From: Prevotella sp.
GTDB lineage: Bacteria > Bacteroidota > Bacteroidia > Bacteroidales > Bacteroidaceae
Assembly: GCA_017455845.1 (NCBI GenBank)
Contig: JAFSYY010000103.1
Span: 1-61,593 of the forward strand
Reading direction: 5' to 3'
DNA: 61,593 nt
A model generated the notes under the pieces. The model did no database searches. It saw only the letters and a program-made list of their open reading frames with translations, and had not been told where the DNA came from. The translations under genes and the position numbers were made by a program. This document shows positions 11,630-28,337 of the stretch, in pieces (the first letter of the stretch is position 1; every line of letters starts with the position of its first letter).

Positions 11630-11881
11630 GCAGTCCGTGCAGGCGCCAGAGTAAGCAGTCCGTGCAGGCGGCTGAATATGTGTCCGTGCAGGCGGCTGAA
11701 TATGTGTCCGTGCAGGCGCCAGAATATGTGTCCGTGCAGGCGCCAGAATAGGCAGTCCGTGCAGGCGCCAGAATAGGCAGTCCGTGCAGGCGCCAGAATA
11801 GGCAGTCCGTGCAGGCGCCAGAATAGGCAGTCCGTGCAGGCGCCAGAATAGGCAGTCCGTGCAGGCGGGTTTCCCCCGCCT
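11630..11881. repeat. GTCCGTGC tandem array, ten copies, between rseC and rnfB
   Basis: GTCCGTGCAGGCG starts at 11633, 11658, 11682, 11706, 11730, 11755, 11780, 11805, 11830 and 11855, a 24-25 bp period. The first nine copies continue with a short GCC or GCT. Only the last carries a full hairpin, AGGCGGG (11863-11869) with CCCGCCT (11875-11881). The nine look like derivatives that lost the loop. The rseC stop sits in the repeat-like junction. The array would be in the operon mRNA. Confidence 0.92.
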
Positions 11882-11942
11882 GAAAGCAAAGAAACAAACT
11901 AAAAGAACAAATAAAACAAATACAACAACAACAATTATTATT

Positions 11943-12815
11943 ATGAATTTCATCTTGATTGCAGTCATTGTGCTTGGAGGCATCGGACTCATCGCAGCCA
12001 TCGTGCTGTTTGTCTGCTCCAAGAAATTTGCTGTTTTCGAAGATCCACGCATTGCACAGGTCAACGAACTGCTGCCCGGTGCCAACTGCGGTGGATGTGG
12101 TTTTGCCGGTTGTGGCGGTATGGCCGACGCACTGGTGAAAGGAGCCGACAACGGCAGCATCGAGGGGCTTAACTGTCCTGTGGGCGGTGCCGAAGTGATG
12201 GGCCAGGTGGCCAGCCTCCTGGACATGGCCATTGCCAATGGCGAGCCGAAGGTAGCCGTCGTCAGATGCAACGGCACCTGTGCCCTGCGGCCTAAAGTGG
12301 CCGAGTATGTAGGTCTTCGCACCTGTGCGGCCATGAACGCATGCAGCGCCGGCGAGACGGCCTGCGGCTTCGGTTGCCTGGGCTGTGGCGACTGTGTGGC
12401 AGCCTGTCAGTTTGATGCCATCCACATGAACCCCGAGACGGGGCTTCCTGAGGTTGACGAGGAGAAGTGCACGGCATGCGGTGCCTGTGTGAAGGCTTGT
12501 CCGCGAAACATCATCGAACTGCGGAAGAAGGGTCCCAAGGGCCGCCGTGTGTTCGTGTCGTGCGTCAACAAAGACAAGGGTGCAGCAGCCATGAAGGCCT
12601 GCAAGGCAGCCTGTATCGGTTGCGGCAAGTGCGAGAAGGAGTGCCCGTTTGGTGCCATCACCATCGAGAACAATGTCTCTTACATCGATTTCACCAAGTG
12701 CCGCCTGTGCAAGAAGTGCGTCGCCGTATGTCCTACCAAGGCCATCCACGCCGTCAACTTCCCTGCACCAAAGCCGGCAGAAACTATTAAAGAAGAAAAG
12801 GAGGCTGAAGCATGA
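11943..12815 (+). CDS. rnfB: Electron transport complex subunit RnfB, iron-sulfur
   Basis: A 290-residue peripheral subunit of the Rnf complex, which couples ferredoxin oxidation with NAD+ reduction to ion pumping. An N-terminal membrane helix (FILIAVIVLGGIGLIAAIVL) is followed by the cluster motif CGGCGFAGCGG near residue 53. Several ferredoxin motifs follow, such as CLGCGDCVAACQFDAI, CTACGACVKACPRNI, CIGCGKCEKECPFGAI and CRLCKKCVAVCPTKAI. I chose the ATG at 11943 because it starts the membrane helix; upstream in-frame codons run into the tandem array. It overlaps rnfC by 4 bp. Confidence 0.95.
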   Translation: MNFILIAVIVLGGIGLIAAIVLFVCSKKFAVFEDPRIAQVNELLPGANCGGCGFAGCGGMADALVKGADNGSIEGLNCPVGGAEVMGQVASLLDMAIANGEPKVAVVRCNGTCALRPKVAEYVGLRTCAAMNACSAGETACGFGCLGCGDCVAACQFDAIHMNPETGLPEVDEEKCTACGACVKACPRNIIELRKKGPKGRRVFVSCVNKDKGAAAMKACKAACIGCGKCEKECPFGAITIENNVSYIDFTKCRLCKKCVAVCPTKAIHAVNFPAPKPAETIKEEKEAEA

Positions 12816-14182
12816 AGATCAAGACTTTTCGCATAGGTGGCATACACCCGGAGGAGAACAAACTGACCCATGAGGTGGCTACACAGGTGGCCCCACTGCC
12901 CAAGCAGGCCATCTTCCCACTGTCGCAACACATTGGTGCACCCGCCAAGCCCGTGGTCCAGAAAGGCGACAAGGTGAAGGTGGGCACGCTGCTGGCCGAG
13001 GCCGGTGGCTTCGTATCGGCACCTATCTATTCATCCGTCAGCGGCACGGTGTTCAAGATTGACACCGCCATCGATGCCACTGGCTATCGCAAGCCCGTCA
13101 TCATCATCAACGTGGAAGGCGATGAATGGGAAGAGAGCATCGACCGCTCCGACAAACTGGAGCAGGTGAAAGACCACCCCGAACTCACGCCCGAGGAAAT
13201 CGTGGAGCGTATCAAGACGGCAGGTGTAGTGGGTATGGGCGGTGCCTGTTTCCCCACCTTTATTAAATTATGTCCGCCACCCACGGCCAAGGCCGAATGT
13301 GTCATCATCAATGCCGTGGAGTGCGAGCCCTATATCACCGCCGACTACCGTCTGATGATGGAGCATGCCGACGAGATACTCGTGGGCCTGGAACTGCTGA
13401 TGAAGGGTGCCAAGGTGACGAAGGGCTACATAGGCATCGAGACCAACAAGCCCGCCGCCATCGACCTGCTCACCGGCAAGTGTGCCGAAGCGTTTTCCGC
13501 TTCGGAATACCAGGTAGAGGTGGTGCCCTTGAAGCAGCGTTATCCGCAGGGTGGTGAGAAGCAACTGGTCGATGCCGTCATCCGCCGTCAGGTGCCTGCA
13601 CCACCCGCCATCCCTGTCAATGTGGGCGCCATCGTGCAGAACGTTGGCACAGCCTTCGCCGTCTATCAGGCAGTGATGAAGCATAAGCCGCTGTTTGAGC
13701 GCTACACCACCGTCACCGGCAAACGGCTGCAGAAGCCCGGCAACTTCCTGGTACGCATGGGCACGCCGATGCAGGACCTGATAGACCTCTGCGGCGGCAT
13801 GCCCGAGGGCGACAACAAACTGCTGGCCGGCGGCCCGATGATGGGCAAGGCTCTGATGTCGACGGAAGTGCCCATCTGCAAGGGCACTAACTCGGTGACC
13901 ATCCTCAGCGACGATGATGCCCGCCGCAAGGAGCCCCAGGCCTGCATACGCTGCGCCAAGTGCGTGGGTGCCTGTCCTATGGGCCTCGAACCTTATCTGC
14001 TGGCCAAACTCTCGGCTTTCAAGAACTGGGAGCGTGCCGAGAAGGAGGACATCGTCAGTTGCATTGAGTGCGGCTCGTGCCAGTTCACCTGCCCCGCCCA
14101 CCGTCCGCTGCTCGACAATATCCGCCAGGGCAAGCAGACCGTGATGGGGATCATCCGCAGCCGTGCGGCTAAAAAGAACTAA
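12812..14182 (+). CDS. rnfC: Electron transport complex subunit RnfC
   Basis: A 456-residue NADH-side subunit of Rnf. The FMN/NAD-binding central fold includes GVVGMGGACFPTFIKL near 140-155 and VIINAVECEPYITADYRLM near 165. Two 4Fe-4S motifs lie near the end, CIRCAKCVGACPMGLEP and CIECGSCQFTCPAHRPL. The length is near the shorter RnfC forms, without the long alanine-rich tail of E. coli RsxC. Heptamer repeats start right after its stop. Confidence 0.95.
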   Translation: MKIKTFRIGGIHPEENKLTHEVATQVAPLPKQAIFPLSQHIGAPAKPVVQKGDKVKVGTLLAEAGGFVSAPIYSSVSGTVFKIDTAIDATGYRKPVIIINVEGDEWEESIDRSDKLEQVKDHPELTPEEIVERIKTAGVVGMGGACFPTFIKLCPPPTAKAECVIINAVECEPYITADYRLMMEHADEILVGLELLMKGAKVTKGYIGIETNKPAAIDLLTGKCAEAFSASEYQVEVVPLKQRYPQGGEKQLVDAVIRRQVPAPPAIPVNVGAIVQNVGTAFAVYQAVMKHKPLFERYTTVTGKRLQKPGNFLVRMGTPMQDLIDLCGGMPEGDNKLLAGGPMMGKALMSTEVPICKGTNSVTILSDDDARRKEPQACIRCAKCVGACPMGLEPYLLAKLSAFKNWERAEKEDIVSCIECGSCQFTCPAHRPLLDNIRQGKQTVMGIIRSRAAKKN

Positions 14183-14210
14183 GAGTTAAGAATTAAGAAT
14201 TAAGAAAAAT
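14183..14210. repeat. Heptamer array between rnfC and rnfD
   Basis: GAGTTAA, GAATTAA, GAATTAA and GAAAAAT follow the rnfC stop codon (14180-14182) without a gap. Only a few bases separate the array from the rnfD ATG at 14214. Confidence 0.85.
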
Positions 14211-14213
14211 ACA

Positions 14214-15218
14214 ATGGGAAAATTAATTGTATCACTTTCGCCTCACGCCCACGGCACCGACTCTGTGGAACGCAACATGTATGGCGTTATCATTGCACTG
14301 ATACCCGCCCTGCTCGTCTCGTTCTTCTACTTCGGAATCGGCTCGGCCATCGTATGCCTTACCAGCGTTCTGGCTTGCGTGCTGTTCGAGTGGGCCATCA
14401 ACAAGTTTATCCTCGGACGCGAGGAATGTACCGTCCTCGACGGCTCTGCTGCCCTGACGGGTCTGCTACTGGGCATGAACCTGCCATCCAACCTCCCCGT
14501 ATGGATCATCATCATCGGTGCCCTCTTCGCCATCGGCGTGGGCAAGATGACCTTCGGCGGACTGGGCAACAACATCTTCAACCCGGCATTGGTAGGCCGC
14601 TGCGTGCTGTTGGTTGCCTTCCCTGCACAGATGACCAGTTGGCCGCTGCCAGGACATCTGCTCGACTATACCGACGCCACCACAGGCGCTACACCACTTG
14701 CTGTCATGAAACAAGCCATCCAGAACCATGACCCCAACGCCCTGAACCAACTGCCCGATGCCTTCAGCCTCCTGCTGGGCGATTATTCCTTAGGCGGAGG
14801 TGCCGGCACCATCGGCGAGATCTGCGGCCTGGCACTGCTGGCGGGCTTTGCCTTCATGCTCTGGCGCAAGATTATCACCTGGCACATCCCCGTGAGCATC
14901 ATCGCAACGGTGTTTGTCTTCAGCGCCGTCATGCACCTCATCGACCCCATCTATGCCGACCCCACCACTGTCATCCTAAGCGGCGGACTGCTGCTGGGTG
15001 CCATCTTCATGGCAACTGACTATGTCACCTCCCCCATGACCGGCAAGGGTCAGATTATCTATGGTGTCTGCATCGGTCTGCTCACCATCATCATCCGTAA
15101 TTGGGGTGCCTATCCGGAAGGCATGTCGTTTGCCATCTTGATTATGAATGCGTTCACACCGCTCATTAATAACTATGTGAAACCCAAGCGCTTCGGAGAA
15201 GTGCCGGCAAAGCAATAA
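14214..15218 (+). CDS. rnfD: Electron transport complex subunit RnfD
   Basis: A 334-residue membrane subunit with about ten helices. The segment DATTGATPLAV near residue 155-165 matches the threonine site where RnfD/NqrB carry covalent FMN. ATDYVTSPMTGKGQIIYG near 265-283 is a conserved C-terminal loop. It lies 13 bp before rnfG. Confidence 0.94.
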   Translation: MGKLIVSLSPHAHGTDSVERNMYGVIIALIPALLVSFFYFGIGSAIVCLTSVLACVLFEWAINKFILGREECTVLDGSAALTGLLLGMNLPSNLPVWIIIIGALFAIGVGKMTFGGLGNNIFNPALVGRCVLLVAFPAQMTSWPLPGHLLDYTDATTGATPLAVMKQAIQNHDPNALNQLPDAFSLLLGDYSLGGGAGTIGEICGLALLAGFAFMLWRKIITWHIPVSIIATVFVFSAVMHLIDPIYADPTTVILSGGLLLGAIFMATDYVTSPMTGKGQIIYGVCIGLLTIIIRNWGAYPEGMSFAILIMNAFTPLINNYVKPKRFGEVPAKQ

Positions 15219-15231
15219 GGAGGGCTTAATT

Positions 15232-15849
15232 ATGAAGAAGTTAGAATCATCTTTATTGAATATGGTGCTGGTACTCACTGGCGTGGCTGTCATCATGGGA
15301 GCCATCCTGGCTTGGGTAAACAGCATTACAAGCGGACCTATCGCCGAACAGAAAGACAAGACCCTTTCTGAAGGCATCAAGGCCGTCATGGTATGCAACG
15401 ACCTCACGGTGGCACGCGTAGACACCGTGAAAAACACGAATGCGAAAGGCAAGGAACTGACATATATTGTCTATCAGACCGTCGATGCCAAGGAACAGGT
15501 ACTGGGTGCAGCAGTAGAGAGCACCAGCGACGGCTTCGGAGGCAAACTGCGCGTGCTGGTGGGATTCAACCCCGAAGGCCAGATCCTGGGCTATACCCTC
15601 CTGGAGCACGCAGAAACGCCCGGCCTGGGTGCCAAAGCCGACAAATGGTTTCAGAAAGGCGAGAAGGGCTGTATCATCGGCCTCAACCCCCAAGAGCCTC
15701 TCACGGTGTCAAAGGACGGCGGCCAGGTAGATGCTATTACGGCCTCAACGATAACAAGCCGTGCCTTCCTGCTGGCCGTCAACAATGCCTATCTGGCCTA
15801 TAAGTCGAAACCTGTTGACGCTGCCACCGGTGCCACTAAGCAGCAATAA
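15232..15849 (+). CDS. rnfG: Electron transport complex subunit RnfG
   Basis: A 205-residue subunit with one N-terminal membrane helix and an extracytoplasmic FMN-binding domain. AVESTSDGFGGKLRVLVGF and HAETPGLGAKAD are family signatures. DAITASTITSRAFLLAVN near 163-180 contains the threonine expected to bind FMN covalently. A good Shine-Dalgarno-like AAGGAGGG precedes the ATG. The stop is followed at once by AT-rich heptamers. Confidence 0.94.
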   Translation: MKKLESSLLNMVLVLTGVAVIMGAILAWVNSITSGPIAEQKDKTLSEGIKAVMVCNDLTVARVDTVKNTNAKGKELTYIVYQTVDAKEQVLGAAVESTSDGFGGKLRVLVGFNPEGQILGYTLLEHAETPGLGAKADKWFQKGEKGCIIGLNPQEPLTVSKDGGQVDAITASTITSRAFLLAVNNAYLAYKSKPVDAATGATKQQ

Positions 15850-15853
15850 TTAT

Positions 15854-15888
15854 TAATTGTGAATTGTGAATTATTAATTATGAATTAT
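15854..15888. repeat. Heptamer array that forms the rnfE start codon
   Basis: TAATTGT, GAATTGT, GAATTAT, TAATTAT and GAATTAT run in strict 7-bp register. The ATG of rnfE (15880-15882) straddles the last two units (TAATTA-TG-AATTAT). The array begins a few bases after the rnfG stop. Confidence 0.85.
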
Positions 15889-16464
15889 ATAAGTATTATC
15901 AAGAACGGCATCATCAAGGACAACCCAACGTTCGTCCTGATGCTTGGTATGTGTCCTACGCTGGCCACTACCACATCCGCGTCCAACGGTATGGCCATGG
16001 GACTGGCCACTATGGCTGTGCTCATCTGCACAAACTTCGTGATTTCATGCATCAAGAGTATCACCCCCGACAAAGTGCGCATACCCGTGTTCATCGTGGT
16101 TATTGCCGCCTTCGTCACACTGCTGCAGATGGTCATCAAGGCCTATCTGCCCGATGTGGACAAGTCGCTGGGACTTTTCATCCCCCTGATTGTGGTCAAC
16201 TGTATCATCCTCGGGCGTGCCGAGGCCTTTGCTGCCAAGAACTCACCTGTGGCCTCGCTCTTCGACGGCATAGGCATAGGTCTTGGATTCACCATGGCCC
16301 TCACCCTGCTGGGCATCGTCCGCGAGATACTGGGGTCGGGAGCCATCTTCGGCTATGTCTTCATCCCCGAGAACTACAACATCCTGCTCTTCGTCTTGGC
16401 CCCAGGAGCATTCATCACCCTGGGTTACCTCATTGCACTGGTAAACAGAATGAGAAATGAGTAA
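15880..16464 (+). CDS. rnfE: Electron transport complex subunit RnfE
   Basis: A 194-residue membrane subunit with six helices. NPTFVLMLGMCPTLATTTSASNGMAMGLA near the N terminus and VVNCIILGRAEAFAAKNSP near residue 100 are family signatures. I chose MNYISIIKNG at 15880; an upstream in-frame ATG at 15859 would be entirely within the repeat array. The final codons (MRNE-stop) also resemble the repeat that follows, so both ends abut short repeats. Confidence 0.94.
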   Translation: MNYISIIKNGIIKDNPTFVLMLGMCPTLATTTSASNGMAMGLATMAVLICTNFVISCIKSITPDKVRIPVFIVVIAAFVTLLQMVIKAYLPDVDKSLGLFIPLIVVNCIILGRAEAFAAKNSPVASLFDGIGIGLGFTMALTLLGIVREILGSGAIFGYVFIPENYNILLFVLAPGAFITLGYLIALVNRMRNE

Positions 16465-16602
16465 TTAGAAATGAGTAATTAGTAATGAGTAATTATGATT
16501 ACCTTGTCACGCATACTCCCCGCAACGGACACTCTGCAAAACAGACGGACTGTCATGCAGGGTAGTCATAATTATTAATTACTAATTACTAATTAATCAT
16601 TA
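16457..16602. mobile_element. Palindromic repeat-armed element between rnfE and rnfA
   Basis: The left arm has three 14-bp units (ATGAGTAATTAGAA and variants, 16457-16498). The right arm has ACTAATT units near 16581-16594. Segments 16479-16504 and 16561-16586 are reverse complements with 23 of 26 matches and enclose a GC-richer core of about 56 bp. The rnfE stop codon (16462-16464) lies in the left arm. No gene is encoded. Confidence 0.6.
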
Positions 16603-16608
16603 AAAGAT

Positions 16609-17211
16609 ATGGAATACCTGTTAATATTCATCAGCGCCATCTTCGTCAACAACATCGTGCTGGCGCAGTTCCTGGGCATCTGCCCCTTCCTGGGCGTATC
16701 AAAGAAGATCGACACCTCGCTGGGCATGTCGGCAGCCGTGGCCTTCGTCATGGTGCTGGCAACACTGGTAACATGGCTGGTGCAGACATACGTGCTCGTG
16801 CCCGCAGGCCTGGAATACCTGCAAACCATCGCCTTCATCCTGGTCATTGCCTCACTAGTTCAGATGGTGGAGATCATCCTGAAGAAGGTCTCCCCTGCCC
16901 TCTATCAGGCACTGGGCATCTTCCTGCCGCTCATCACCACCAACTGTGCCGTGCTCGGCGTGGCCATCCTCGTCATCCAGAAAGAGATGGACCTGGGCCA
17001 GAGCATCATGTATGCCCTCTCCACGGCTATTGGCTTCGGTCTTGCACTCACCGTCTTTGCCGGCATGCGCGAGCAACTGGAACTGACCAACGTGCCCAAG
17101 GGCATGCGCGGCATGGCCATCGTGCTGGTATCCGCCGGCCTGCTCAGCCTGGCCTTCATGGGTTTCTCGGGTGTTGACAACGGCCTGCGCACCCTGTTCG
17201 GGCTGAACTAA
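16609..17211 (+). CDS. rnfA: Electron transport complex subunit RnfA
   Basis: A 200-residue six-helix membrane subunit that pairs with RnfE, inverted in topology. Signatures seen: NNIVLAQFLGICPFLGVSKK near residue 14 and PLITTNCAVLGVAILVIQKE near 105. It is the last gene of the rnf operon; a convergent region with a palindromic array follows. Confidence 0.95.
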   Translation: MEYLLIFISAIFVNNIVLAQFLGICPFLGVSKKIDTSLGMSAAVAFVMVLATLVTWLVQTYVLVPAGLEYLQTIAFILVIASLVQMVEIILKKVSPALYQALGIFLPLITTNCAVLGVAILVIQKEMDLGQSIMYALSTAIGFGLALTVFAGMREQLELTNVPKGMRGMAIVLVSAGLLSLAFMGFSGVDNGLRTLFGLN

Positions 17212-17620
17212 CATTCAACGGTTACTGGAATACAAGTCAATGGAGGCTGTTTGCCAGGTCAAAACATACTCCTTGCAAACTCAAAACATGCTCCTTTGAA
17301 AGTTGTTGACCTAGGTCAATCGTTCTGTTGACCTAGGTCGATCGATCTGTTGACCTAGGTCGATCGATCTGTTGACCTAGGTCGATCGATCTGTTGACCT
17401 AGGTCACCAGGTCGCGTGACAGCCGTCAACAGCATTTGTAAAAGTAAGCAGCCTCCGCACTCTCATGCGGTAGCCGCTCCCCTCCCCCTCATTTAAGGAA
17501 GAGTTTTGTTTTTATTTGTTTTTTGGTGTTTATTTGTTTTTTGAAAGACGCGTAGCGTTCCAAGTATAAGGTATGAATAATGCAGGCCAAATACGTGGAG
17601 TTCGTGGAATACGCGACTGA
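17212..17620. other. Gene-free stretch between convergent rnfA and mfd
   Basis: No credible gene is present in these 409 bp. It contains a five-copy 22-bp palindromic array (17306-17415), flanked by copies of AGGTC-like text and followed by T-rich direct repeats (TTTATTTGTTTTTTG) near 17510-17545. Both neighbours end here, so a promoter function is unlikely. Confidence 0.7.
17306..17415. repeat. 22-bp palindromic tandem array, five copies
   Basis: TTGACCTAGGTC starts at 17306, 17328, 17350, 17372 and 17394, an exact 22-bp period. Each unit centres on the palindrome GACCTAGGTC. The spacer in three units is the second palindrome GATCGATC. The spacing is close to two helical turns, so dimeric proteins would bind one DNA face. 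Confidence 0.92.
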
Positions 17621-20600
17621 CTATATTTGCGACATCACTTGCACGGCATCGCCCACGGTGGGCACCTCGGCAATCACCATGGAGCGCTTGCCGTTCTGCT
17701 CCCGGAGGTTGCAGCGACGCACGTTGGTAGTGGCGTAGGTGAGGATGCGGTCGAAGGTGTCGCTCTGGTAGAAGGGACTGTTAGCATTGCTGACAAAGTA
17801 GAGGAACATGCGCCCCTGCTTGAGCATGATCTTTTCGCAACCCAACTGCTTGCCCAAACGGCGCAGGGGCACCACATGCAGCAGTTCCTCGGCCTGCGGG
17901 GGCAGCGGCCCGAAGCGGTCGATAAGCCGCTGGCGATAGGCCTCCAGTTCCTGGTCGTTGCGGGTGTTGTCGAGTTCACGATAGAGCAGCATACGCTCGG
18001 AGTCGCTGGGCACATACTGGTCGGGGAAGTACATTTCAAGATCGGACTCGAGGGTGCAGTCACTTACAAATGGGGAATGAGAAATGAGAAATGAGGAATG
18101 AGGATGTTTAAATGAAGAAATGCCCTCATCAGAATCATTTCTCTTTTCATTTCTCATTTTTTCATTTACATTTCTCATTTCTAATTCCTCATTGCTAATT
18201 TCACTATGGAGTTCCGCCATCGCCTCGTTGAGAATCTTCTGGTAAGTCTCGTAGCCGAGGTCGGAGATGAAGCCGGACTGCTCGGCTCCGAGCAGGTTGC
18301 CGGCACCACGGATGTCGAGGTCCTGCATGGCGATGTTGATGCCGCTGCCCAAGTCGGCGAAGTTTTCGAGGGCCTCCAGACGGCGGCGGCTGGGAGCGGG
18401 CAGTGCCGACAGCGGCGGCGCCAGCAGATAGCAGAAGGCCTTGCGGTTGCCGCGGCCCACACGTCCACGCATCTGGTGCAGGTCGGAGAGTCCGAAATAC
18501 TGCGCGCTATTAATAATAATGGTGTTGGCGTTGGGAATGTCGATGCCGTTTTCAACAATGGTGGTAGAAAGCAACACGTCGTAGTCGTAGTTGGAGAAGT
18601 CGAGCACGATTTTCTCCAATTCGTCGGGCTTCATCTGTCCGTGGCCGATGGCGATGCGACAGTCGGGGATGTACTTCTTGATCATCTCGGCAATGTGGGG
18701 CAGTTCGCTGACACGGTTGTTGACGAAGAACACCTGTCCGTTGCGGCTCATCTCGAAGTTGATAGCCTCGGTGATAATCTCTGCCGAGAAGGTATGTATC
18801 TCTGTCTGAATGGGATAGCGGTTGGGTGGGGGTGTCTGGATGACGCTCAGGTCGCGAGCCCCCACGAGCGAGAACTGCAGGGTGCGGGGAATAGGTGTGG
18901 CACTCATGGTGAGTGTATCGACATTGGTCTTCATCTGGCGCAGTTTCTCCTTGGTGGAGACGCCAAACTTCTGTTCCTCGTCGATAATCAGCAAGCCCAA
19001 GTCCTTGAACTTCACATTCTTGCCTATGAGTTTATGCGTACCAACCAGGATGTCTATCTTACCATCCTCAAGGTCTTTCAAGAGAGCCGTGGTCTGCTTT
19101 GTGGTTCGGGCACGGGTCAGGTAATCCACACGCACGGGCATGTCTTTCAAACGTGATGAGAAGGTGCGATAGTGCTGATAGGCCAGCACCGTAGTGGGTA
19201 CCATGACTGCCACCTGCTTGCCATCGACGGCAGCCTTGAAGGCAGCGCGCACTGCCACCTCCGTCTTGCCGAAGCCCACATCGCCACAGACCAGACGGTC
19301 CATGGGCTTCTGCATCTCCATGTCGGCCTTCACATCCTGTGTCGCCTTGAGTTGGTCGGGGGTGTCCTCATAGAGGAACGAGGCCTCGAGTTCATGCTGC
19401 AGGTAGGTGTCGTGACTGAATGCGAAACCACGCTGATGGCGACGGGCGGCATAGAGACGGATAAGGTCGCGGGCAATGTCCTTGATGTGCTTCTTGGTGC
19501 GCTCTTTCAACCGCTCCCACTGTCCCGTGCCCAGCGTGGACATTCGCGGCTGCTGGCCGTCGTCCTGCGACTTGTATTTCGACACCTTGTATAAAGAATG
19601 GATGCTCACGTAGATGGCATCGCCCCGCTGGTAGATAATCTTTATCATCTCCTGAAAGCCGCCATCCTGCAGGGGCATACGTACCAGCCCGCCAAACTTG
19701 CCGATGCCATGATCCACATGCACCACGTAGTCGCCCACCTCAAACTGCTGAATCTCCTTCAGCGTCAGCGCGACCTTGCCGCTGCGGGCCTTGTCGCTCT
19801 TCAGATTGTATTTATGGAAACGGTCGAAGATCTGATGGTCGGTGAAGAGGCACACCTTCAGGTCGTTGTCCACAAAACCCTCGTGCAGGGTCTTGTCAAC
19901 ACCTTCGAACGTCAGGCTCGACTTTTCTGCTAAGATGTCCTTCAGGCGTTCTATCTGCTTGGCGCTGTCTGCCAGGATATAGAGTTTGTAGCCCTTGAGG
20001 ATATAGTCTTCGAAGGCCTGTGTGAGCAGGTCGAAGTTCTTGTGGAACAGGGGCTGAATGTTGATGTTGAACTTTATGGAAGCATCTGTCCTCTCACCTC
20101 TCACCTCTCCACTCTCACCTCTCCACTCTCCCCTCTCACCTCTCAGCACAATCTTCCTGAAAGGCTCTGCGTCGGCTGCAAACTGCGTGCCCGTGATGAT
20201 CTGACTGTCGCGCTGCATCTCCTTCTCTATCTGGCGTTGCTCCATCTCGGTGGCCTCGGCCAGACGCTCCTGCATGGCCTGCTGCGAAAAGCCCTCCTGG
20301 AAGGTATGCTCTATCGATTCACGCAGAAACAGAAGGTCCTTCATCACCAGCAGCGTGTGGGCGGGCAGGAACTTGAGGATCGACTCTTTCTCTTCTATGG
20401 CAGTCAGTTCGGGCACGATGTCTACATGCTCGCACCGTTCTTTAGACAACTGGTTTTCTACCTCGAAAGTACGCAGCGAGTCTATCTCGTCGCCGAAGAA
20501 GTCGATACGGAAGGGATATTCATGACTGAAGGAAAAGATGTCGAGGATAGAGCCACGCAGGGCAAACTGACCGGGCTCGTACACATAATCGACCTCGCGG

Positions 20601-21966: not shown

Positions 21967-21983
21967 ATTATTCAAGTTTCCTG

Positions 21984-21991
21984 CAAAATTA
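21984..21991 (-). promoter_or_regulatory. Promoter -7 box for the family 2 glycosyltransferase and mfd
   Basis: TAATTTTG on the minus strand, 17 bp upstream of the ATG at 21966, fits TAnnTTTG with a very short leader. Confidence 0.5.
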
Positions 21992-22001
21992 GCAAAAATA
22001 T

Positions 22002-22032
22002 TTTGAAATATCAACTTTTCTGCGTATTTTTG
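22002..22032 (+). promoter_or_regulatory. Promoter of sugar transferase gene, likely leaderless
   Basis: TTTG at 22002-22005 and TATTTTTG at 22025-22032 are 19 bp apart. The ATG at 22037 is only 5 bp after the -7 box, so the mRNA probably starts at or within a few bases of the start codon. Confidence 0.65.
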
Positions 22033-22036
22033 CATC

Positions 22037-22798
22037 ATGATTCCAAAAAAGTTACATCTGTGCTGGCTCAGCGGCGATGCCTATCCTGCAAAAATAGCGC
22101 GTTGCATTGACTCGTGGAAGAAGGTGCTGCCCGACTACGAGATAGTGCTGTGGGACACCAAACGCTTCGACCTGAGCCAGTCGCCATGGGTGCGCGAGGC
22201 CTTCGAAAACAAGAAATACGCCTTCGCGGCCGACTTTATCCGCTTCTACGCCCTCTACCACGAGGGCGGCATCTATCTGGACAGCGACGTGGAGGTGCTG
22301 AAACGCTTCGACGACCTGCTGGACCTGCCCTATTTCATGGGAGTCGAGAAGGCTGGCACGCCCGAGGCCGCCATCATCGGTGCCGAGAAGGGCTGCGACT
22401 GGATTAAGCAGTGCCTGGACTACTACGACGGCCGACATTTCGCAAAGGCCGACGGCTCGCTGGATATACGTAAGTTGCCAGAGATCATGGACGAGCAGAT
22501 ACGCCAACTGAAGCCGCTGCGTGTTCTCTCTTTAGATGAGAGCCGGCAGATTCGGAAACTGGACTTCCAGAAAGAGGTCCTCGTGATGAACGATGCATTC
22601 TTCTCGCCAAAGGTCTTTGACTCGCGTGAGGTGGAACTGACACCCTATACCTACGCCATCCACCACTACCAGAACTCCTGGTTCTCGCCCAAGGCCAAGG
22701 CTTATTATCGCACGCGCACATGCCTCATCCGGCTCTTCGGCTATCAATTCATCAGCAAGGCAGAACGAATCATCATGCCATGGAGGTTTAAGAGTTGA
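22037..22798 (+). CDS. Glycosyltransferase, sugar-binding DXD family (GT32-like)
   Basis: A 253-residue enzyme beginning IPKKLHLCWLSGDAYPAKIARCIDSW. The motif FAADFIRFYALYHEGGIYLDSDVEVLKRFDDL near 67-98 is typical of capsule and lipopolysaccharide transferases with a DxD metal site. The donor and acceptor are unknown. The last codons (AAG AGT TGA) lie in a heptamer array that also contains the next start codon. Confidence 0.88.
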   Translation: MIPKKLHLCWLSGDAYPAKIARCIDSWKKVLPDYEIVLWDTKRFDLSQSPWVREAFENKKYAFAADFIRFYALYHEGGIYLDSDVEVLKRFDDLLDLPYFMGVEKAGTPEAAIIGAEKGCDWIKQCLDYYDGRHFAKADGSLDIRKLPEIMDEQIRQLKPLRVLSLDESRQIRKLDFQKEVLVMNDAFFSPKVFDSREVELTPYTYAIHHYQNSWFSPKAKAYYRTRTCLIRLFGYQFISKAERIIMPWRFKS

Positions 22799-22827
22799 GA
22801 GTTGAGAGTTGAGAGACTTTAGTTGAG
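22791..22827. repeat. Heptamer array spanning a stop codon and a TTG start
   Basis: AGAGTTG three times, AGAGACT, then TTAGTTG. The upstream stop TGA (22796-22798) and the downstream start TTG (22823-22825) both lie inside. The 17-bp text GAGAGACTTTAGTTGAG (22811-22827) recurs exactly at 30743-30759 before aroC. Confidence 0.88.
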
Positions 22828-23941
22828 TTTGAGAGAATTGAAACAATTGAGTATCATAGTACCTGTATATCAGGTAGAGCAGTATATCAGGGCTTGTGTG
22901 GAGAGTATTTTCATGCAAGCACTGAGCGATGATGAGTTTGAGGTGATACTGGTAAACGACGGCACACGTGACAACAGTTTCAGTCGTATAGCCGACATCA
23001 TTAAGCAGCACTCAAACATCATCGTCATGGAGCAAGAGAACCAAGGACTCTCTGCCGCCCGCAACACAGGACTGACAAAGGCTACCGGACAATATGTCCT
23101 GTTTCTCGACTCCGACGACGTGCTAGTGCCAGACAGCATTAAGCCCTTGGTCAGCCAGGCCATGGAAAAAGATGCAGACCTCCTGATTGCCGGCTTTGAA
23201 AAGGTTTCCGACAAGGAACTGCAGGCAGAAAGTCCGTGCCGACGGGTTTTCCCCGTCGGGTCCGTCGCCCCCGATAGTCCGTGCCGACGGGTTTTCCCCG
23301 TCGGGTCCGTCGCCACCGATAGTCCGTGCCGACGGGTTTTCCCCGTCGGGTCCGTCGCCCCCGTCGCCCCCTTCACCGAGAAAACCGGCCACGAAGCCTT
23401 CCTCCACGACCTCGTCTCCCGCGAGTGCTACGTCTGGCGTACGTTTTACAAGAAAGCCTTCCTCGATGCCAACAACCTGCGCTTCATTCCCGGCATCTAT
23501 TTCGAAGACGTGCCGTTTACCACCGAGTGTTACCTCAAGGCCGGCAGATGCCTCAAGACCGACAGCGTGTTCTACCTCTACCGGCAGCGCGAACAGTCTA
23601 TCTGTTCTTCCCTCGACGCCCGGAAGATCTACGACCTTAACACGGTGATGGCCTGCCTCTGGGACATGCGCGAGCACCTGCACCTTAGCAATGAGTTGGA
23701 TGCAAAGTATATGGATGTCATCTTTACCACCTTCTCTATCACACAGTGGTATATCATCCAGTACGACAACCTTTTTCATGAAAGACGGCAACTCATAGCC
23801 GACCTCAAGAAAAAGGTGCCCAACCTGCAATTCACCCACACCAGGAAACAGAGGGTCGTCTCTCTTCTGTTCCGTCTGATGCCCTGCAACTATATTTGGT
23901 TACGACGGACTGCCAACAGATTTATTACCCTCTTCAAGTAA
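22823..23941 (+). CDS. Glycosyltransferase family 2 with in-frame hairpin repeats
   Basis: A 372-residue GT-A enzyme: LSIIVPVYQVEQYIRACVESI near the N terminus, ILVNDGTRDNSF, and the metal site LFLDSDDVLVP near 94. The start is TTG; an in-frame TAG lies directly before it and no ATG precedes the fold, so the 5' end appears reshaped by the repeat. Residues about 136-181 are three copies of SPCRRVFPVGSVAPD encoded by GTCCGTGC repeats, placed between the catalytic half and the acceptor half (EAFLHDLVSRECYVW). The 3' end overlaps the convergent next gene by 42 bp. Confidence 0.85.
   Translation: MSLRELKQLSIIVPVYQVEQYIRACVESIFMQALSDDEFEVILVNDGTRDNSFSRIADIIKQHSNIIVMEQENQGLSAARNTGLTKATGQYVLFLDSDDVLVPDSIKPLVSQAMEKDADLLIAGFEKVSDKELQAESPCRRVFPVGSVAPDSPCRRVFPVGSVATDSPCRRVFPVGSVAPVAPFTEKTGHEAFLHDLVSRECYVWRTFYKKAFLDANNLRFIPGIYFEDVPFTTECYLKAGRCLKTDSVFYLYRQREQSICSSLDARKIYDLNTVMACLWDMREHLHLSNELDAKYMDVIFTTFSITQWYIIQYDNLFHERRQLIADLKKKVPNLQFTHTRKQRVVSLLFRLMPCNYIWLRRTANRFITLFK
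23232..23366. repeat. GTCCGTGC hairpin array in a glycosyltransferase, three copies
   Basis: GTCCGTGCC begins at 23232, 23277 and 23322, a 45-bp period (15 codons). Each unit carries the hairpin CCGACGGG with CCCGTCGG around a TTTTC loop. It is translated in frame three times. Confidence 0.92.
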
Positions 23942-25063
23942 ATCCTTCCACTGCTGCATCACGGTATCGACGTCAAAGACTCGGGCCCGCTCAACCGAGG
24001 CTGCCGAGAACTGCTGCCTCAGTTTCTGGTCCTCTATCAGCCTCAAGAGACACTCGGCAAAGCGCTCCACGTCGCCATCGGGTACAACAAAGCCGTTCTT
24101 CCCGTCTTTCACTACATCGGAAGGACCAAAAGGACAGTCGAACGTAACGCAGGGCAACCCCGCCTGCATGGCCTCGAGAAGCACCAGCCCGAAGCCCTCG
24201 AAGCGCGAACTCAACGCAAAGACGGCACTCTGCCCGTACTCGTCGGCAATAGTTGGCGTAAACGGATGTATGCTGACAGTTTTTAGCGACCTGTCCATTA
24301 TCAGCCGTTGCAAGTCGCCTTCCAGTGTGCCCGAGCCGAAAATGGTCAGCGACCAGTCGGGGTGCCGTTGCTCCACCGTCTGCCATGCCTCTATCAGGCG
24401 GTCGAAGCCTTTCTGCCATTCCAGCCGTCCCACGGCGATGACACGCTTTGTCATCACGTCACTCAGACGACTGACAGCCATCACCGTGAAGTTAGGAATC
24501 ACCTCCACCCTTCGTGCCCGCTGCCACTCCTTGGCATCGCCCGTTGTCAGCGTCACCACTACGTCGGCCTGACGCTCCACACGCCGGAAATAGCGTTTCT
24601 TATAATAGCGCATAAACAGGCGCGAAGGCAGCGAACGGCTCAAACCACGGTCGGACATGGTGAAGATACGGGCCTCATGGCTCTCCACAATCTTCTTGGC
24701 CCTACAGGGTATGCCACTCACCAGGTCGGCATTGAAATAGCCCAGGCCTATCAATACGTCGGGGTCAATGCGCTGGATGGTCTCTGTCAGCCCATGAAGC
24801 AACCGCTGATAAAGTTGATGCTTCACCCACAGCCGCTTGGGATAGCCGTATTTATACTGCGAATAATAGGGAATGTTCAGGTTTATCTGTGTCACCTGGT
24901 CAGACAGATAATAGGCGTTGGGCATCGTAGCAAAGTCCTGATAGCAGGTCACCACATAAACCTCATAGCCATAATGGGCGGCCATGTAGTTCATCTTGTC
25001 GCTCAGAATACGCTCCGCGCCTCCTTTGCTCGCCAGTGAGTCAATAACATATACTATTTTCAT
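23900..25063 (-). CDS. Glycosyltransferase family 4 (GT-B)
   Basis: A 387-residue GT-B enzyme. The N-terminal half begins KIVYVIDSLASKGGAERILSD. The donor-binding half has VIAVGRLEWQKGFDRLIEAW near 220 and ALSSRFEGFGLVLLEAMQAGLPCVTFDCPFGPSDVV near 295-330, with the catalytic E-x7-E pattern. It is most like O-antigen or capsule mannosyl/galactosyl-type transferases; specificity is unknown. Its last 14 codons overlap the 3' end of the convergent glycosyltransferase. Confidence 0.9.
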   Translation of the reverse strand: MKIVYVIDSLASKGGAERILSDKMNYMAAHYGYEVYVVTCYQDFATMPNAYYLSDQVTQINLNIPYYSQYKYGYPKRLWVKHQLYQRLLHGLTETIQRIDPDVLIGLGYFNADLVSGIPCRAKKIVESHEARIFTMSDRGLSRSLPSRLFMRYYKKRYFRRVERQADVVVTLTTGDAKEWQRARRVEVIPNFTVMAVSRLSDVMTKRVIAVGRLEWQKGFDRLIEAWQTVEQRHPDWSLTIFGSGTLEGDLQRLIMDRSLKTVSIHPFTPTIADEYGQSAVFALSSRFEGFGLVLLEAMQAGLPCVTFDCPFGPSDVVKDGKNGFVVPDGDVERFAECLLRLIEDQKLRQQFSAASVERARVFDVDTVMQQWKDLLEEGNKSVGSPS

Positions 25064-25081
25064 ATCTCCATATAATATATC

Positions 25082-25116
25082 CTCCTTACTCCTTTCTCCT
25101 TACTCCTTCCTCCTCA
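25082..25116. repeat. Heptamer array at the 3' end of a glycosyltransferase
   Basis: CTCCTTA, CTCCTTT, CTCCTTA, CTCCTTC and CTCCTCA. On the minus strand they encode the charged C-terminal tail and the stop codon TAA of the gene ending at 25086. Confidence 0.85.
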
Positions 25117-26246
25117 ACCACACGTCCCATCTGTACTTTCCACGACAGATGCTCTACCGAACGTCGTATCTCCGAAGGATTGAAATGATGATTGTCGATA
25201 AAGTCTAACACCTGCTGAATGTCGATGGGCGACTCATCGGCCGGTGCCTTCAGCACGTAAGGCTGATGATCGAAGTCGGAATCGCATTCAGAATAGATAA
25301 AGGGTATGCCACGACTGGCATACTCACGGTTCTTCAGCGTCTTGATATGCGTGATGCCACTGCGATGACGCCCCAGACTACCCACGGCAAAGACACACTG
25401 ATTAAAGACCCGGTCGAGTCCTTCGCCAAACAGTTTCCCATGAAAGATGACGTATGGCTCTATACCATATTTATTTATATAGGTGGCAAAGCCGGGCGCA
25501 CGGCTGGAGCCGTTCATCTCCGGGTCCCATACGTCGCCCACGATATGGAAGTACACCTTTTTTAATTTTTTATTTTTACATTCTTCATAGTATTTCCCCA
25601 TGCCGTGGATGAAGCGGTCGAAGCCATGCCACGTATGCACCTCCGCTACTGCTATGACATGGATGTCGTCACCGCCAGAGCCGTCATAGCGGTGCAGCGG
25701 TATGGCATCGAAGTCCACACCATTGCTGATATTGATGGTACGTTGGCCGAATATCTGCTTCGCCTCTGAGAAGGTGACCACCGCATCCATCTGCCGGGCC
25801 AGTGCGTTGCGGAACATCTTATCCACATAAAGCCCTATCTTCTTGTCCCACGGATAGCCCCTGAACTCACCATCGTATGGATAGGTGGGAATCTCCTGCA
25901 AACAGTGTATGCCGTTTTTCCTCAACCTGCGGAACAGGCTTACCAGCCAAGGCGTGGCATTCTGGTAGTTACGCGAATAGACCATCTCTATCTCATGGTC
26001 TATGCAGTAGTCGGCTATACAGCCATAACTCATGCGCTGACGGATGGCTGCCAGCGCCCCGTGACCGTAGTTCTTGATAGGTCTGTCGTCGATAAAGCGG
26101 CACAGGTTACGCTTAGAGTCATAGTCATACGAGCAGACATGCACCTCATGTCCGCCCTGCCGCAAGCCTTTTATCTGGGCGAGCATCTTCTTGCTGATGC
26201 CGCTGCCTGGGTCAAAGCCATGATATGTAAGGAACAGAATCTTCAT
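25086..26246 (-). CDS. Glycosyltransferase family 1/4 (GT-B)
   Basis: A 386-residue enzyme starting MKILFLTYHGFDPGSGISKKMLAQIKGL, typical of GT-B sugar transferases. VIAVAEVHTWHGFDRFIHG marks the start of the second domain near 207, and VFAVGSLGRHRSGI lies in the nucleotide-sugar site. The C-terminal EEEGVRRKE is encoded by a heptamer array and is probably not ancestral. The likely -7 box is at 26267-26274. Confidence 0.85.
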   Translation of the reverse strand: MKILFLTYHGFDPGSGISKKMLAQIKGLRQGGHEVHVCSYDYDSKRNLCRFIDDRPIKNYGHGALAAIRQRMSYGCIADYCIDHEIEMVYSRNYQNATPWLVSLFRRLRKNGIHCLQEIPTYPYDGEFRGYPWDKKIGLYVDKMFRNALARQMDAVVTFSEAKQIFGQRTINISNGVDFDAIPLHRYDGSGGDDIHVIAVAEVHTWHGFDRFIHGMGKYYEECKNKKLKKVYFHIVGDVWDPEMNGSSRAPGFATYINKYGIEPYVIFHGKLFGEGLDRVFNQCVFAVGSLGRHRSGITHIKTLKNREYASRGIPFIYSECDSDFDHQPYVLKAPADESPIDIQQVLDFIDNHHFNPSEIRRSVEHLSWKVQMGRVVEEEGVRRKE

Positions 26247-26266
26247 GATGTCCAGGTTTTGAAGGG

Positions 26267-26274
26267 CAAAGATA
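26267..26274 (-). promoter_or_regulatory. Promoter -7 box for the GT-B gene ending at 25086
   Basis: TATCTTTG on the minus strand, about 20 bp before the ATG at 26246. Confidence 0.55.
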
Positions 26275-26303
26275 AAGATTTTTCATGAAATATGCAAATA
26301 TCA

Positions 26304-26335
26304 TTTGGTTTTTATCATGATTTGCATTATCTTTG
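26304..26335 (+). promoter_or_regulatory. Promoter of GT4 gene
   Basis: TTTG at 26304-26307 and TATCTTTG at 26328-26335, spaced 20 bp, before the ATG at 26353. Confidence 0.65.
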
Positions 26336-26352
26336 CAGAAAAATTTGAAGAT

Positions 26353-27651
26353 ATGAACGTTTGTTTCGTGGCTGAATCCATTTTCTCCTTCGGAGGCGTG
26401 CAAAGGGTGACGGCCGTCATTGCCAAAGAACTGTCGAAGACAGCCAAGGTTACCATCATGACCTTCGACAGTCCGGAAAGCAAGGACACCAGCCTCTATG
26501 CACTGGACGAGACCAACATCGGCTATGAGTTTCTGGCCTATCCCGAAGTAGGCACGCTGAAGCAGAAATGGTGCAAGGCATACAGTTTCCTCTACCGCAG
26601 GCTGTTGCCACAGACAGCGCTCACCTCTGCACTCTATGCCCACAGTTCATTCCCCAGCGAACGGCGGCAGGTGCTCATCAACCGTCTGAACGCTTACGAC
26701 TATGATGCTATCATTGCCGTTCACGCTCCTATTGCCACACGCCTGGCAGCCATCCGCAACAGCCTGAAGTGCAAGAACCTGATAGGATGGATTCACAACT
26801 CCTTCGAGGCCATGTTTTCTGAAGGCTCTTGGTATGCCGGCCCCGAACTGGAGAAATATTTCGTCTATCAGTTCCGTCGTCTTACCCACGCCGTGGTGCT
26901 CTGCCACTGCGACGTGGCTCCCTACCAGAAAAGGCATGCTTTCACCCCCGAAGTGATCTACAACCCCCTAACCCTTGTGCCCCAAGTCCGTGCGGGCGGG
27001 TTTCCCCCGCCCGGTCAAGCAGGCGTCCGTGCGGGCGGGTTTTCCCCGCCTGGTCAAGCAGGCGTCCGTGCGGGCGGGTTTCCCCCGCCTGGTCAAGCAG
27101 GCGTCCGTGCGGGCGGGTTTTCCCCGCCCGATAAGTTCCTGGCCGTGGGCCGTTTCTCCCACCGCCATAAAGGCTTCGACCTGCTCATTGAAGCCTTTGC
27201 CCTGTTTGCCAAAACCAACCAGCACTGGACGCTCGACATCGTTGGCGAGGGTCCGGAAGAGCCCCTCTACCGCCGCCTTATCGCAGAGCATCATCTGGAA
27301 GAGCGCATACATCTGCACCCCTTCACCAACAACATACAAGCCTACTACGCCGAGGCCCAGGTCTACGTACTCTCTTCCCGATGGGAGGGCTTTGGACTGG
27401 TGCTTGTCGAAGCCATGGCCCACGGGTTGCCCGTCGTCTCTTCCGACCTGCCCACGAGCAAGGAAATCATGGGCGACTTCGCCCTTTACTTCCCCAACGG
27501 CAACGTCGCAGCCCTGGCTCAGCGACTTAAGGAGGCCACGCAAATCGACAGGGAAGAGAAAGCAAAAGAAGCCCTGCAGATAGCAGAGCGATTCAATATA
27601 AAAACCATCATCAAGCAATGGCAACGACTCATCCAGAACAACCCCGCCTGA
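26353..27651 (+). CDS. Glycosyltransferase family 4 with four in-frame hairpin repeats
   Basis: A 432-residue GT-B enzyme. [20 protein letters not shown] begins domain one. The donor domain begins [21 protein letters not shown], and [29 protein letters not shown] is the conserved donor site. Between VIYNPL and DKFLAVGRF, residues about 211-259 are four units of [13 protein letters not shown] or [13 protein letters not shown] encoded by GTCCGTGC repeats, exactly at the interdomain linker. The ATG at 26353 is preferred over an upstream in-frame codon inside the promoter. Its last codons and stop resemble the next repeat array. Confidence 0.9.
26986..27130. repeat. GTCCGTGC hairpin array in a GT4 gene, four copies
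   Basis: GTCCGTGCGGGCGGG begins at 26986, 27025, 27064 and 27103, a 39-bp period (13 codons). Hairpins pair GGGCGGG with CCCGCCC or CCCGCCT around TTTCC/TTTTC loops. All are translated in the same frame. Confidence 0.93.
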
Positions 27652-28337
27652 ATAGCGTCCGTGCCCAGCGGTTTTCCCGCCTGAATAGCGTCCGTGCCCA
27701 GCGGTTTTCCCGCTGGAATCCAGGCGTCCGTGCCCAGCGGTTTTCCCGCTGGGATTTACGTCAGCACCTTTCATCCGCCCCATGCCTGAAGCGCTGGCTC
27801 GACTATATCATCATGAACCAGCGCGATGCCCGTCCCCGCTGGTACATCCGCCTGCTGGCACCCCTCTATCAGCACCGTGCGCGGGGCTCAAAGATCTATC
27901 CAAGCGTCAGGATGGACACCCCACCCTACCGCCGCTTCTCGCTGGGCAGGCATAGCGTGGTGGAGTCCTTCTGCTGCATCAATAACGCCGTGGGCGACGT
28001 CATCATCGGCGATTACACCCGCATCGGCATCCATAACACCGTCATCGGCCCGGTGACCATAGGCAGTCACGTCAACCTAGCACAGGGCATCACCGTAACG
28101 GCACTAAACCATAATTTCTCAGATACCACCAAGAGAATTGACGAGCAGGGGATAACCACGAAGCCCGTCATCATCAGCGACGATGTGTGGATAGGTGCCA
28201 ATGCCGTCATCCTGCCTGGCGTCACCATTGGCCGCCATTGCGTTGTTGCCGCAGGTGCCGTCGTCACAACCGACGTGCCCGACCATACAATAGTCGGCGG
28301 CGTACCCGCCAAGATAATAAAACATTTAAAAGGATGA
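27618..28337 (+). CDS. Hexapeptide-repeat acyltransferase (LbetaH, WcaF/maltose acetyltransferase type)
   Basis: Up to 239 residues. The left-handed beta-helix is clear: [36 protein letters not shown], then the catalytic-region histidine in [12 protein letters not shown], then [29 protein letters not shown]. It probably O-acetylates a polysaccharide sugar. The start is uncertain: ATG 27618 overlaps the previous gene and gives 60 residues from three GTCCGTGC repeats, whereas ATG 27813 skips them but also drops [10 protein letters not shown], which looks ancestral. It overlaps pyrK by 4 bp. Confidence 0.85.
27657..27751. repeat. GTCCGTGC hairpin array at the acyltransferase 5' end, three copies
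   Basis: GTCCGTGCCCAGCGG starts at 27657, 27690 and 27726. Hairpins pair CAGCGG with CCGCTG around TTTTC; the first copy ends in CCGCCTG instead. Translated units read VRAQRFSR. The upstream GT4 stop codon lies in CCCGCCTGA, which matches the end of a repeat copy. Confidence 0.9.

What the first reader, a model, noticed from the sequence alone, without database searches (positions are those of the whole stretch)
11630..27760. GTCCGTGC-hairpin repeat family with covarying stems, used as coding and non-coding DNA
Four tandem arrays (11630, 23232, 26986, 27657; 20 copies) share GTCCGTGC and a centre GGTTT(T)CC, but the stem differs by locus and stays paired: AGGCGGG/CCCGCCT, CCGACGGG/CCCGTCGG, GGGCGGG/CCCGCCC, CAGCGG/CCGCTG. 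Compensatory change means the hairpin itself is selected or copied as a structure. Two arrays lie wholly inside glycosyltransferase genes in frame. This resembles the Rickettsia palindromic element situation in principle, but I know of no description of this family.
Basis: partly seen in the sequence, partly recalled or inferred. Interest (0 to 1): 0.87.

Follow-up and report, generated by a model that had tools for sequence, protein, structure and literature searches.

The report
Variable-stem hairpin repeats inside genes
A rumen Prevotella-like bacterium carries about a hundred copies of a 27-28-base DNA hairpin, mostly inside its genes, whose two arms change from place to place yet stay matched, and close relatives carry the same design with a different tag and loop; it looks like a new branch of the known bacterial REP repeats.

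Summary
Confirmed and much larger than reported. The unit is a rigid 27-28-nt hairpin: tag GTYCGTG, 8-bp stem NNNNNNGG/CCNNNNNN, loop TTTNC. The genome holds 105 strict matches, 0 for the reversed pattern. In the 317 kb read, 110 copies lie at 71 places; 85 are perfectly paired, with 35 different stems. Covariation is extreme: 98.6% of cells pair against 64% in shuffles. Sister genomes have the same architecture with other tags and loops. Of 31 comparable sites, 16 are insertions that relatives lack, 6 formed over conserved codons without length change, 2 are shared with a sister species in another tag and loop, 7 are unclear. A RAYT-like transposase ORF holds three copies and lies in the densest cluster. 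Best reading: a REP-type family moved by a RAYT-like HUH protein that reads tag, loop and pairing rather than stem letters; template switching keeps the arms matched; arrays grow by slippage at the hairpin. Movement and the RAYT's role are inferred. New variant of a known kind.

The parts
11633..11882 (+). Array 1: ten GTCCGTGC tags, 24/25-bp period, only the last copy (11855-11882) is a complete hairpin; intergenic
   Evidence: perfect 8-bp stem
23232..23363 (+). Array 2: three complete hairpins, 45-bp period, in frame in a GT2 gene (reads SPCRRVFPVGSVAPD)
26986..27130 (+). Array 3: four hairpins, 39-bp period (first and last perfect, middle two with one mismatch in the second pair from the foot), in frame in a GT4-type gene (reads [13 protein letters not shown]); homologues in G495 and G496 lack it
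27657..27753 (+). Array 4: three copies, 33/36-bp period, last one perfect; overlaps the N-terminal part of a hexapeptide-transferase ORF
11219..11629 (+). RseC/MucC-like gene upstream of array 1
   Evidence: E 8e-27
11943..12815 (+). Ferredoxin-domain gene (RnfB-like) downstream of array 1
   Evidence: for the domains; the name RnfB is from knowledge
22823..23941 (+). Glycosyltransferase family 2 gene holding array 2
26305..27651 (+). Glycosyltransferase group 1 gene holding array 3
27618..28337 (+). Hexapeptide-repeat transferase ORF whose possible N-terminus reads through array 4
   Evidence: the true start codon is not known

Best explanation
The repeats are a lineage-specific family of short mobile hairpins of REP type. 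The unit is about 27 nt (TCCGTG + 8-nt arm + 5-nt loop + 8-nt arm), nine codons long, so a new copy can sit in a gene without a frame shift. A RAYT-like HUH/Y1 protein is proposed to recognise single-stranded hairpins by the 5' foot (GTG), the T-rich loop and an unbroken stem, but not by the letters of the stem, and to copy them to new sites. Because stem letters are free, each locus drifts; template switching between the arms during replication re-matches a changed arm to its partner, and can turn near-palindromes in genes into full elements. Polymerase slippage at the hairpin then duplicates the left flank, tag and left arm, giving tandem arrays whose last (3') copy is the complete one. The preferred tag and loop shift as a dialect in each species. 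Shown: structure, covariation, genome-wide dispersal, empty sites, 27-nt gaps, dialects, array anatomy, in-place formation, a RAYT-like ORF with three copies. Inferred: that the RAYT moves them, template switching, slippage.
For: 105 strict matches, 0 reversed; 5 nt between GTCCGTGC and GGTTT in all 47 hits of a pattern that allowed 2-16, 1 hit for the reversed control. 71 places, 110 copies, 85 perfect, 35 stems; covariation score 0.844 against 0.176 in shuffles, none of 500 as high. Empty sites: PepT in 14 of 14 relatives aligned; RnpA, QueE, DusB, MetG and others; 27-nt gaps at C73 in 4 of 5 relatives and at one G495 element in 2 of 2 relatives. Of 22 arrays 19 have only spacings divisible by three; the three exceptions have no long ORF or only a 199-aa opposite-strand one. 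In 21 of 22 arrays the 3' copy is perfect, against 21 of 39 other copies. A RAYT-like ORF on C94 (HLH and YIRNNP motifs) holds three elements and lies in the densest cluster, 6 places in 7.6 kb where 0.23 per 8 kb is expected. Sister RAYT-like ORFs are rich in internal hairpins of 7 bp or more: 8 of 9 against 30% of random 1.2-kb stretches, P 4e-4. In other TnpA-REP systems loop Ts are strongly selected and a stem mismatch seriously lowers cleavage (Marinomonas), and upper-stem letters can be swapped for their complement (E. coli) (PMC8266576, passages).
Against: No transposition was observed. The C94 protein scores only 1.9e-4 with the RAYT model, under its cut-off, and has no Y1_Tnp Pfam match; a profile of ten RAYT-like proteins finds transposase structures only at E about 0.1. 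The one G495 RAYT-like ORF that I found does not carry G495's TTCTG hairpin. In G495 pairing is looser: of 19 pattern hits 6 are perfect, 10 have one mismatch, 3 have more. The canonical GT[AG]G foot is not met in most copies (GTGG in 17 of 71, counting the first stem base). REPs are mostly intergenic (PMC3733652), these lie mostly in ORFs. Six sites formed in place, not by insertion. Only 317 kb of a 68% complete draft genome was read for this.
Confidence: 0.6

Rival explanations
1. Recognition-site drive without transposition: a DNA-binding or DNA-uptake factor prefers the hairpin, and sequences that drift towards it spread by recombination, as with DNA uptake sequences and their species dialects.
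For: Formation over conserved codons without length change at SufD, a GH3 gene, C15, C33:7245 and C46:2397; dialect differences between species; at the two shared sites (ClpB, GH2) tag and loop differ while stems are nearly the same.
Against: 16 of 31 comparable sites are insertions of units absent in relatives; about 100 copies only; known uptake sequences do not depend on hairpin pairing (recalled). Uptake genes were not examined.
Confidence: 0.12
2. Functional RNA hairpin in messages (a binding site for an RNA-binding protein, or a translation or stability element), kept by selection on RNA.
For: 53 of 73 ORF-associated places are on the sense strand and 34 of these in one reading phase; in G495 15 of 16 AGTGTG copies with at most one mismatch are sense in one phase.
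Against: 20 of 73 are antisense to the longest ORF, at least three of these in genes with homologues; relatives lack most; the window has no Rfam match at the gathering threshold but two tRNAs. A phase bias is also explained by which peptide is tolerated.
Confidence: 0.08
3. Transposase-less palindromic elements like CGTC-tagged REPs and Rickettsia RPE-4/RPE-6, moved by an unknown enzyme, with the cluster at the RAYT-like ORF being coincidence.
For: Stem 8 bp and loop 5 nt as in CGTC family 2; intragenic use as in Rickettsia; CGTC repeats are not linked to RAYTs (PMC3733652). The RAYT-like call is weak.
Against: No CGTC tag and no CCA tail; the first two stem pairs are A-T in about a fifth of places; the densest cluster is at a RAYT-like ORF.
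Confidence: 0.12
4. Only neutral replication error: quasi-palindrome correction and slippage produce and multiply hairpins with no mobile unit.
For: Array anatomy, stems that occur once each at the five fully paired in-place sites, abundant microsatellites in this genome.
Against: Cannot place the same tag and loop at 71 places or make clean 27-nt gaps.
Confidence: 0.05

Closest known systems
REP/REPIN elements with RAYT (TnpA-REP)
   Same: Short dispersed hairpin with a 5' foot, fully paired 8-bp stem, 5-nt T-rich loop, lineage-specific; two inverted pairs, both on C94; a RAYT-like ORF with copies between HUH and Tyr motifs
   Different: Stem letters almost free; tag GTYCGTG, not GTAG; mostly intragenic; tandem direct arrays; loop and tag dialects between close species; in-place formation
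RAYT subclass 2.4 with REPs inserted in the transposase gene (PMC6006769, passages)
   Same: Abundant in Bacteroidetes; in-frame REP insertions between HuH and Y; YIxNNP-type motif as on C94
   Different: Their REPs are long or double-foot, here short 8-bp hairpins; their table gives NH[IFV]H, these ORFs read mostly DHxH and EHLH on C94
Rickettsia palindromic elements RPE-4/RPE-6 and CGTC-tagged repeats (PMC3733652)
   Same: Short hairpins, 8-9-bp stems, 4-5-nt loops, also inside ORFs
   Different: Tag, A-T first pairs and CCA tail absent here; CGTC repeats are not linked to RAYT
Coding palindromes of nematomorph mitochondria (PMC6649704, abstract) and template-switch hairpins (PMC8794818, abstract)
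   Same: Perfect inverted repeats in coding DNA; multi-base changes that keep arms matched
   Different: Neither abstract describes a dispersed family with a shared tag and loop

Membership tests
REP element (RAYT-associated) | High-copy, dispersed short palindrome in one genome | tested here: met
   105 strict copies, 0 reversed control
REP element (RAYT-associated) | GT[AG]G tetranucleotide at the 5' foot | tested here: not met
   GTG plus first stem base; GTGG in 17 of 71 places
REP element (RAYT-associated) | Basal stem of 7-20 fully paired nt, loop of 2-5 nt, at least three G/C in the first four stem nt | tested here: met
   8-bp stem perfect in 64 of 71 representatives, 5-nt loop, G/C rule in 63 of 71 (rule from PMC6006769)
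REP element (RAYT-associated) | Copies in or beside a RAYT gene | tested here: inconclusive
   C94 ORF holds three copies, but its RAYT match is weak; the C35 RAYT-like ORF has none and the G495 one lacks its species' hairpin
REP element (RAYT-associated) | Cleavage and strand transfer by the RAYT | not testable with these tools
   needs protein and oligonucleotides
REP element (RAYT-associated) | Mainly intergenic | tested here: not met
   73 of 76 places in open frames of 120 aa or more, some of these frames spurious
CGTC-tagged repeats / RPE-4, RPE-6 | CGTC (or TGTC, CCTC) end and CCA tail | tested here: not met
   tag and +1 to +3 composition
CGTC-tagged repeats / RPE-4, RPE-6 | A-T pairs in the first two stem positions | tested here: not met
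   A or T in 15 of 71 at each of the two positions
DNA uptake sequence | Preferential uptake of DNA bearing it | not testable with these tools
   needs a competence assay

The most novel reading that the evidence does not exclude
A genome-wide, structure-directed rewriting process: native codons that happen to resemble the hairpin are converted, without insertion, into perfect elements with the species' tag and loop, one arm being copied from the other even at the cost of amino-acid changes, so that a recognition system edits conserved protein-coding genes in place.
Probability: 0.25. Interest if true: 0.9.

Novelty: new variant of a known kind. Interest (0 to 1): 0.72.

Why it matters
How REP hairpins arise, spread and keep their pairing is an open question. 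Here stem letters are free while tag, loop and pairing are held, which separates what a recognising enzyme would read from what it would ignore, and four close genomes show gain, dialect difference and in-place formation at sites that can be compared. It also shows hairpins adding peptides to conserved proteins (RnpA, QueE, PepT and others) in a rumen bacterium, and offers natural examples in which one arm seems to have rewritten the other.

Tried and rejected
Phage origin: 10 viral contigs matched a TTTTC form of the pattern, none paired, so chance. Known RNA family: in the window only two tRNAs reach Rfam's gathering thresholds. Same dialect elsewhere: 0 of 99 other genomes in a sample of the genus, and 1 of 394 others in a phylum sample, with a single hit. 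A G495 12-mer, GTCTATGGCGG, looked like a sister tag but lies mostly in a repeat-rich coding region. The C3 element and a G495 copy share stem and 12 downstream bases, but that gene is a more distant homologue (58% against 75% for a better one, which lacks the element), so I did not count it as shared. The C35 Y1_Tnp ORF carries no element of this family. A profile of the RAYT-like proteins finds transposase structures only at E about 0.1. Papers: no description of this family in the listings (15 of 229 shown; 5 of 5; 9 of 9); some searches were for related mechanisms. Not done: orientation against replication, folding of the RAYT-like protein, search of metagenome contigs.
Full report
Observation. 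The window holds 20 copies of GTCCGTGC, all on the + strand in four arrays; shuffles gave a mean of 2.4 and a largest value of 7. The window is contig 59 of a 2.43-Mb, 68% complete genome in 124 contigs. GTCCGTGC alone is not over-represented in the genome (116 against 131 for the reversed pattern), but GTCCGTGC followed within 2-16 nt by GGTTT is: 47 against 1, in all 47 with exactly 5 nt between. A scan for perfect hairpins without any motif, in 187 kb of own sequence, showed the full design: GTYCGTG, 8-bp stem ending in GG, loop TTTNC, and the other arm. The strict pattern occurs 105 times, the reversed control 0.

Structure. In 317 kb of own sequence held, 110 copies have at least 6 of 7 tag letters and GG-TTTNCC; 85 are perfectly paired, 12 have one mismatch, 13 have two to five. 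They form 71 places. Taking the 3'-most copy of each place, 64 of 71 are perfect, and each of the six variable pairs is complementary in 96-100% of places against 35-58% expected from composition; the inner two G-C pairs are fixed by the search pattern. On the 55 distinct representatives 98.6% of cells pair against 64.3% in shuffles, and 136 cells differ on both sides against 34 in shuffles.

Where they lie. With slightly looser criteria there are 76 places; 73 lie in an open frame of at least 120 aa, 53 on the sense strand (34 in the phase reading SVxxGFPxx) and 20 on the other. Some of these frames are spurious; the one opposite the 11630 array is, by its surroundings. Of 22 arrays, 19 have only spacings divisible by three; the three others have no long frame or only a 199-aa opposite-strand one. 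The 11630 array, intergenic, has a 24/25-bp period and is not among the 22, because only its last copy has the loop.

Arrays. In 21 of 22 arrays the 3'-most copy is a perfect hairpin, against 21 of 39 of the others; several upstream copies are cut in the loop or right arm and continue with the local left flank. This is what slippage at a hairpin would leave: the dispersed unit is the single hairpin, the array is local growth.

Relatives. A PepT search in named genomes gave rumen Prevotella-type MAGs as nearest: RUG10775 (G494), RGIG7796 (G495), RUG14617 (G496), at 89-90%. The own dialect is absent from 99 other genomes sampled in the genus and met once in 394 others of the phylum. But G495 has AGTGTG + stem + TTCTG: 19 hits against 1 reversed; G494, G496, G497 and G498 have 0 to 2. 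With a common pattern (GTG-N6-GG-TTYYS-CC) the counts (control) are own 130 (5), G495 49 (3), G496 32 (2), G494 17 (4), and 0 to 8 (0 to 5) in the 22 other genomes searched. Pairing in G495 is looser than in own: of the 19 hits, 6 are perfect, 10 have one mismatch (in the outer two pairs in 9 of these), and 3 have more. None of 80 PepT loci of relatives (639 kb) had a perfect hairpin of this type.

Site comparison. I sent 42 of the 76 places to relatives (14, 27, PepT); 31 had homologous sequence. My reading of the alignments: 16 insertions absent in relatives (PepT, RnpA, QueE, DusB, MetG, C73, a peptidase of the DPP type on C14, M16 on C116, GH3 on C111, C22, C27, C34:13931, window 26993, C75:16181, two on C78); 6 formed without length change (SufD, GH3 on C75:11853, C15, C33:7245, C46:2397, and C14:19030, which is only 6/8 paired in own); 2 shared with G495 (ClpB, GH2 on C75:84521); 7 unclear (ValS, C3, C38, C46:2133, C75:39488, C81, C120); 11 without homologue. 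Gene names here are from knowledge of the sequences, not from a family search. At C73 four of five relatives have a 27-nt gap, and one G495 element is a 27-nt gap in both other relatives: nine codons.

In-place sites. At SufD, compared with L226, the right arm begins with the native CCAGC while AG in the left arm reads GC; at C46:2397 the left arm is near-native and the right arm CCGTCGAT of G494 reads CCGTCAGC, Ser for Asp. Relatives pair 2 to 6 of 8 at SufD and 4 or 5 of 8 at C46:2397, own 8 of 8. The stems at the five fully paired in-place sites occur once each in the table. One arm rewriting the other is what template switching does, and it is in print as a way to create and maintain hairpins (PMC8794818, abstract and outline seen; PMC8604942, search listing). 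The ancestral states are inferred, not reconstructed. Own PrfC has a near-palindrome (6/8) where G495 has a perfect one.

Dialects. At ClpB and GH2 own and G495 share an element with nearly the same stem (TCCGGCGG against CCCGGCGG; TCCGGTGG against TCCGGCGG) but each with its species' loop and tag; the G495 copies are 7/8 paired. G494 and G496 share a GH3 site with CTTGACGG/CCGTCAAG and CTTAGCGG/CCGCTAAG.

A transposase. One Y1_Tnp match was found in the own genome, an ORF on C35 (21.8 bits, just under the cut-off, for the ATG- or TTG-started protein). A second ORF, on C94, has an HLH motif and YIRNNP, aligns with RAYT-like ORFs of relatives with invariant HxH and Tyr, and matches the RAYT model weakly (1.9e-4; C35 7.6e-9; both under the cut-off). 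The C94 ORF holds three elements, two of them an inverted pair between the HUH and Tyr motifs, and lies in the densest cluster: 6 places in 7.6 kb, Poisson P 1.8e-7 for one window, not corrected for scanning. RAYT-like ORFs of relatives carry a hairpin of 7 bp or more in 8 of 9 cases against 30% of random 1.2-kb stretches (P 4e-4), and of 8 bp or more in 5 of 9 against 13%. G494's C6 ORF has CCCGCTGG-TTCT-CCAGCGGG, which recurs in another G494 locus. Against: the C35 ORF has no element, and the one G495 RAYT-like ORF found lacks its own species' hairpin. In-frame REP insertion between HuH and Y is described for RAYT subclass 2.4, abundant in Bacteroidetes (PMC6006769, passages).

Mechanism. 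In other TnpA-REP systems tag mutations are largely tolerated for binding (Stenotrophomonas) or cleavage (Marinomonas), specific loop bases are needed (TT and A of TTTA in Marinomonas), a stem mismatch seriously lowers cleavage, and E. coli's enzyme accepts the upper stem swapped for its complement, though it needs its GTAG tag and a bulge (PMC8266576, passages). An enzyme of that kind could hold loop and pairing and leave stem letters free, as seen here. I therefore favour a RAYT-moved hairpin with template-switch maintenance and slippage arrays at 0.6. Direct proof of movement and of the enzyme is missing.

Novelty. Intragenic REPs and RPEs are known (PMC3733652, sections 6 and 15 and passages). 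Not found in the listings: free stems with fixed tag and loop, species dialects at shared sites, and in-place formation in genes. Hence a new variant of a known kind.

Noticed in passing
window 8176, 14174, 15848, 16449, 18069, 18135, 20090, 22791, 25082, 37397, 49169, 49366, 52970: Many 7-bp tandem repeats; low-complexity repeats also lie inside conserved genes of this genome (RnpA SSQQPAA, QueE EMRNEKWEMRNE).
   Followed up: no
window 17304-17405 and 45563-45678: Two other palindromic arrays, TGTTGACCTAGGTCGATCGATC x4.6 and TTGTATTCCGGCCGAATACAAA x5.3; similar TTGTAT hairpins occur in L008 and L009.
   Followed up: no
window 4437-4457: Perfect hairpin CTTGACGG-TTTCC-CCGTCAAG without the tag (AAACGCG before it); the same stem occurs in G494 and G495 elements.
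   Followed up: partly
L131 (own C35) near 4639: The other RAYT-like ORF has its own in-gene repeat and hairpin TGTTGTGAC-TCA-GTCACAACA, read as SVVTQAPYVH; no other full copy in the own sequence searched.
   Followed up: partly
L335 and L340 against L298 and L339: At one homologous site G495 and G494 have loop TTCTG while G496 and own have GGAAA, the reverse orientation, as if the loop had been inverted.
   Followed up: no
L262-L263 (G495 C49): Large coding repeat region with recurrent VYGGG-type codons (GTCTATGGCGG).
   Followed up: no
window 52449: 17-bp perfect hairpin AAAAAGGCTGCCAGTCG, loop ATT, next to a 16-bp tandem repeat.
   Followed up: no
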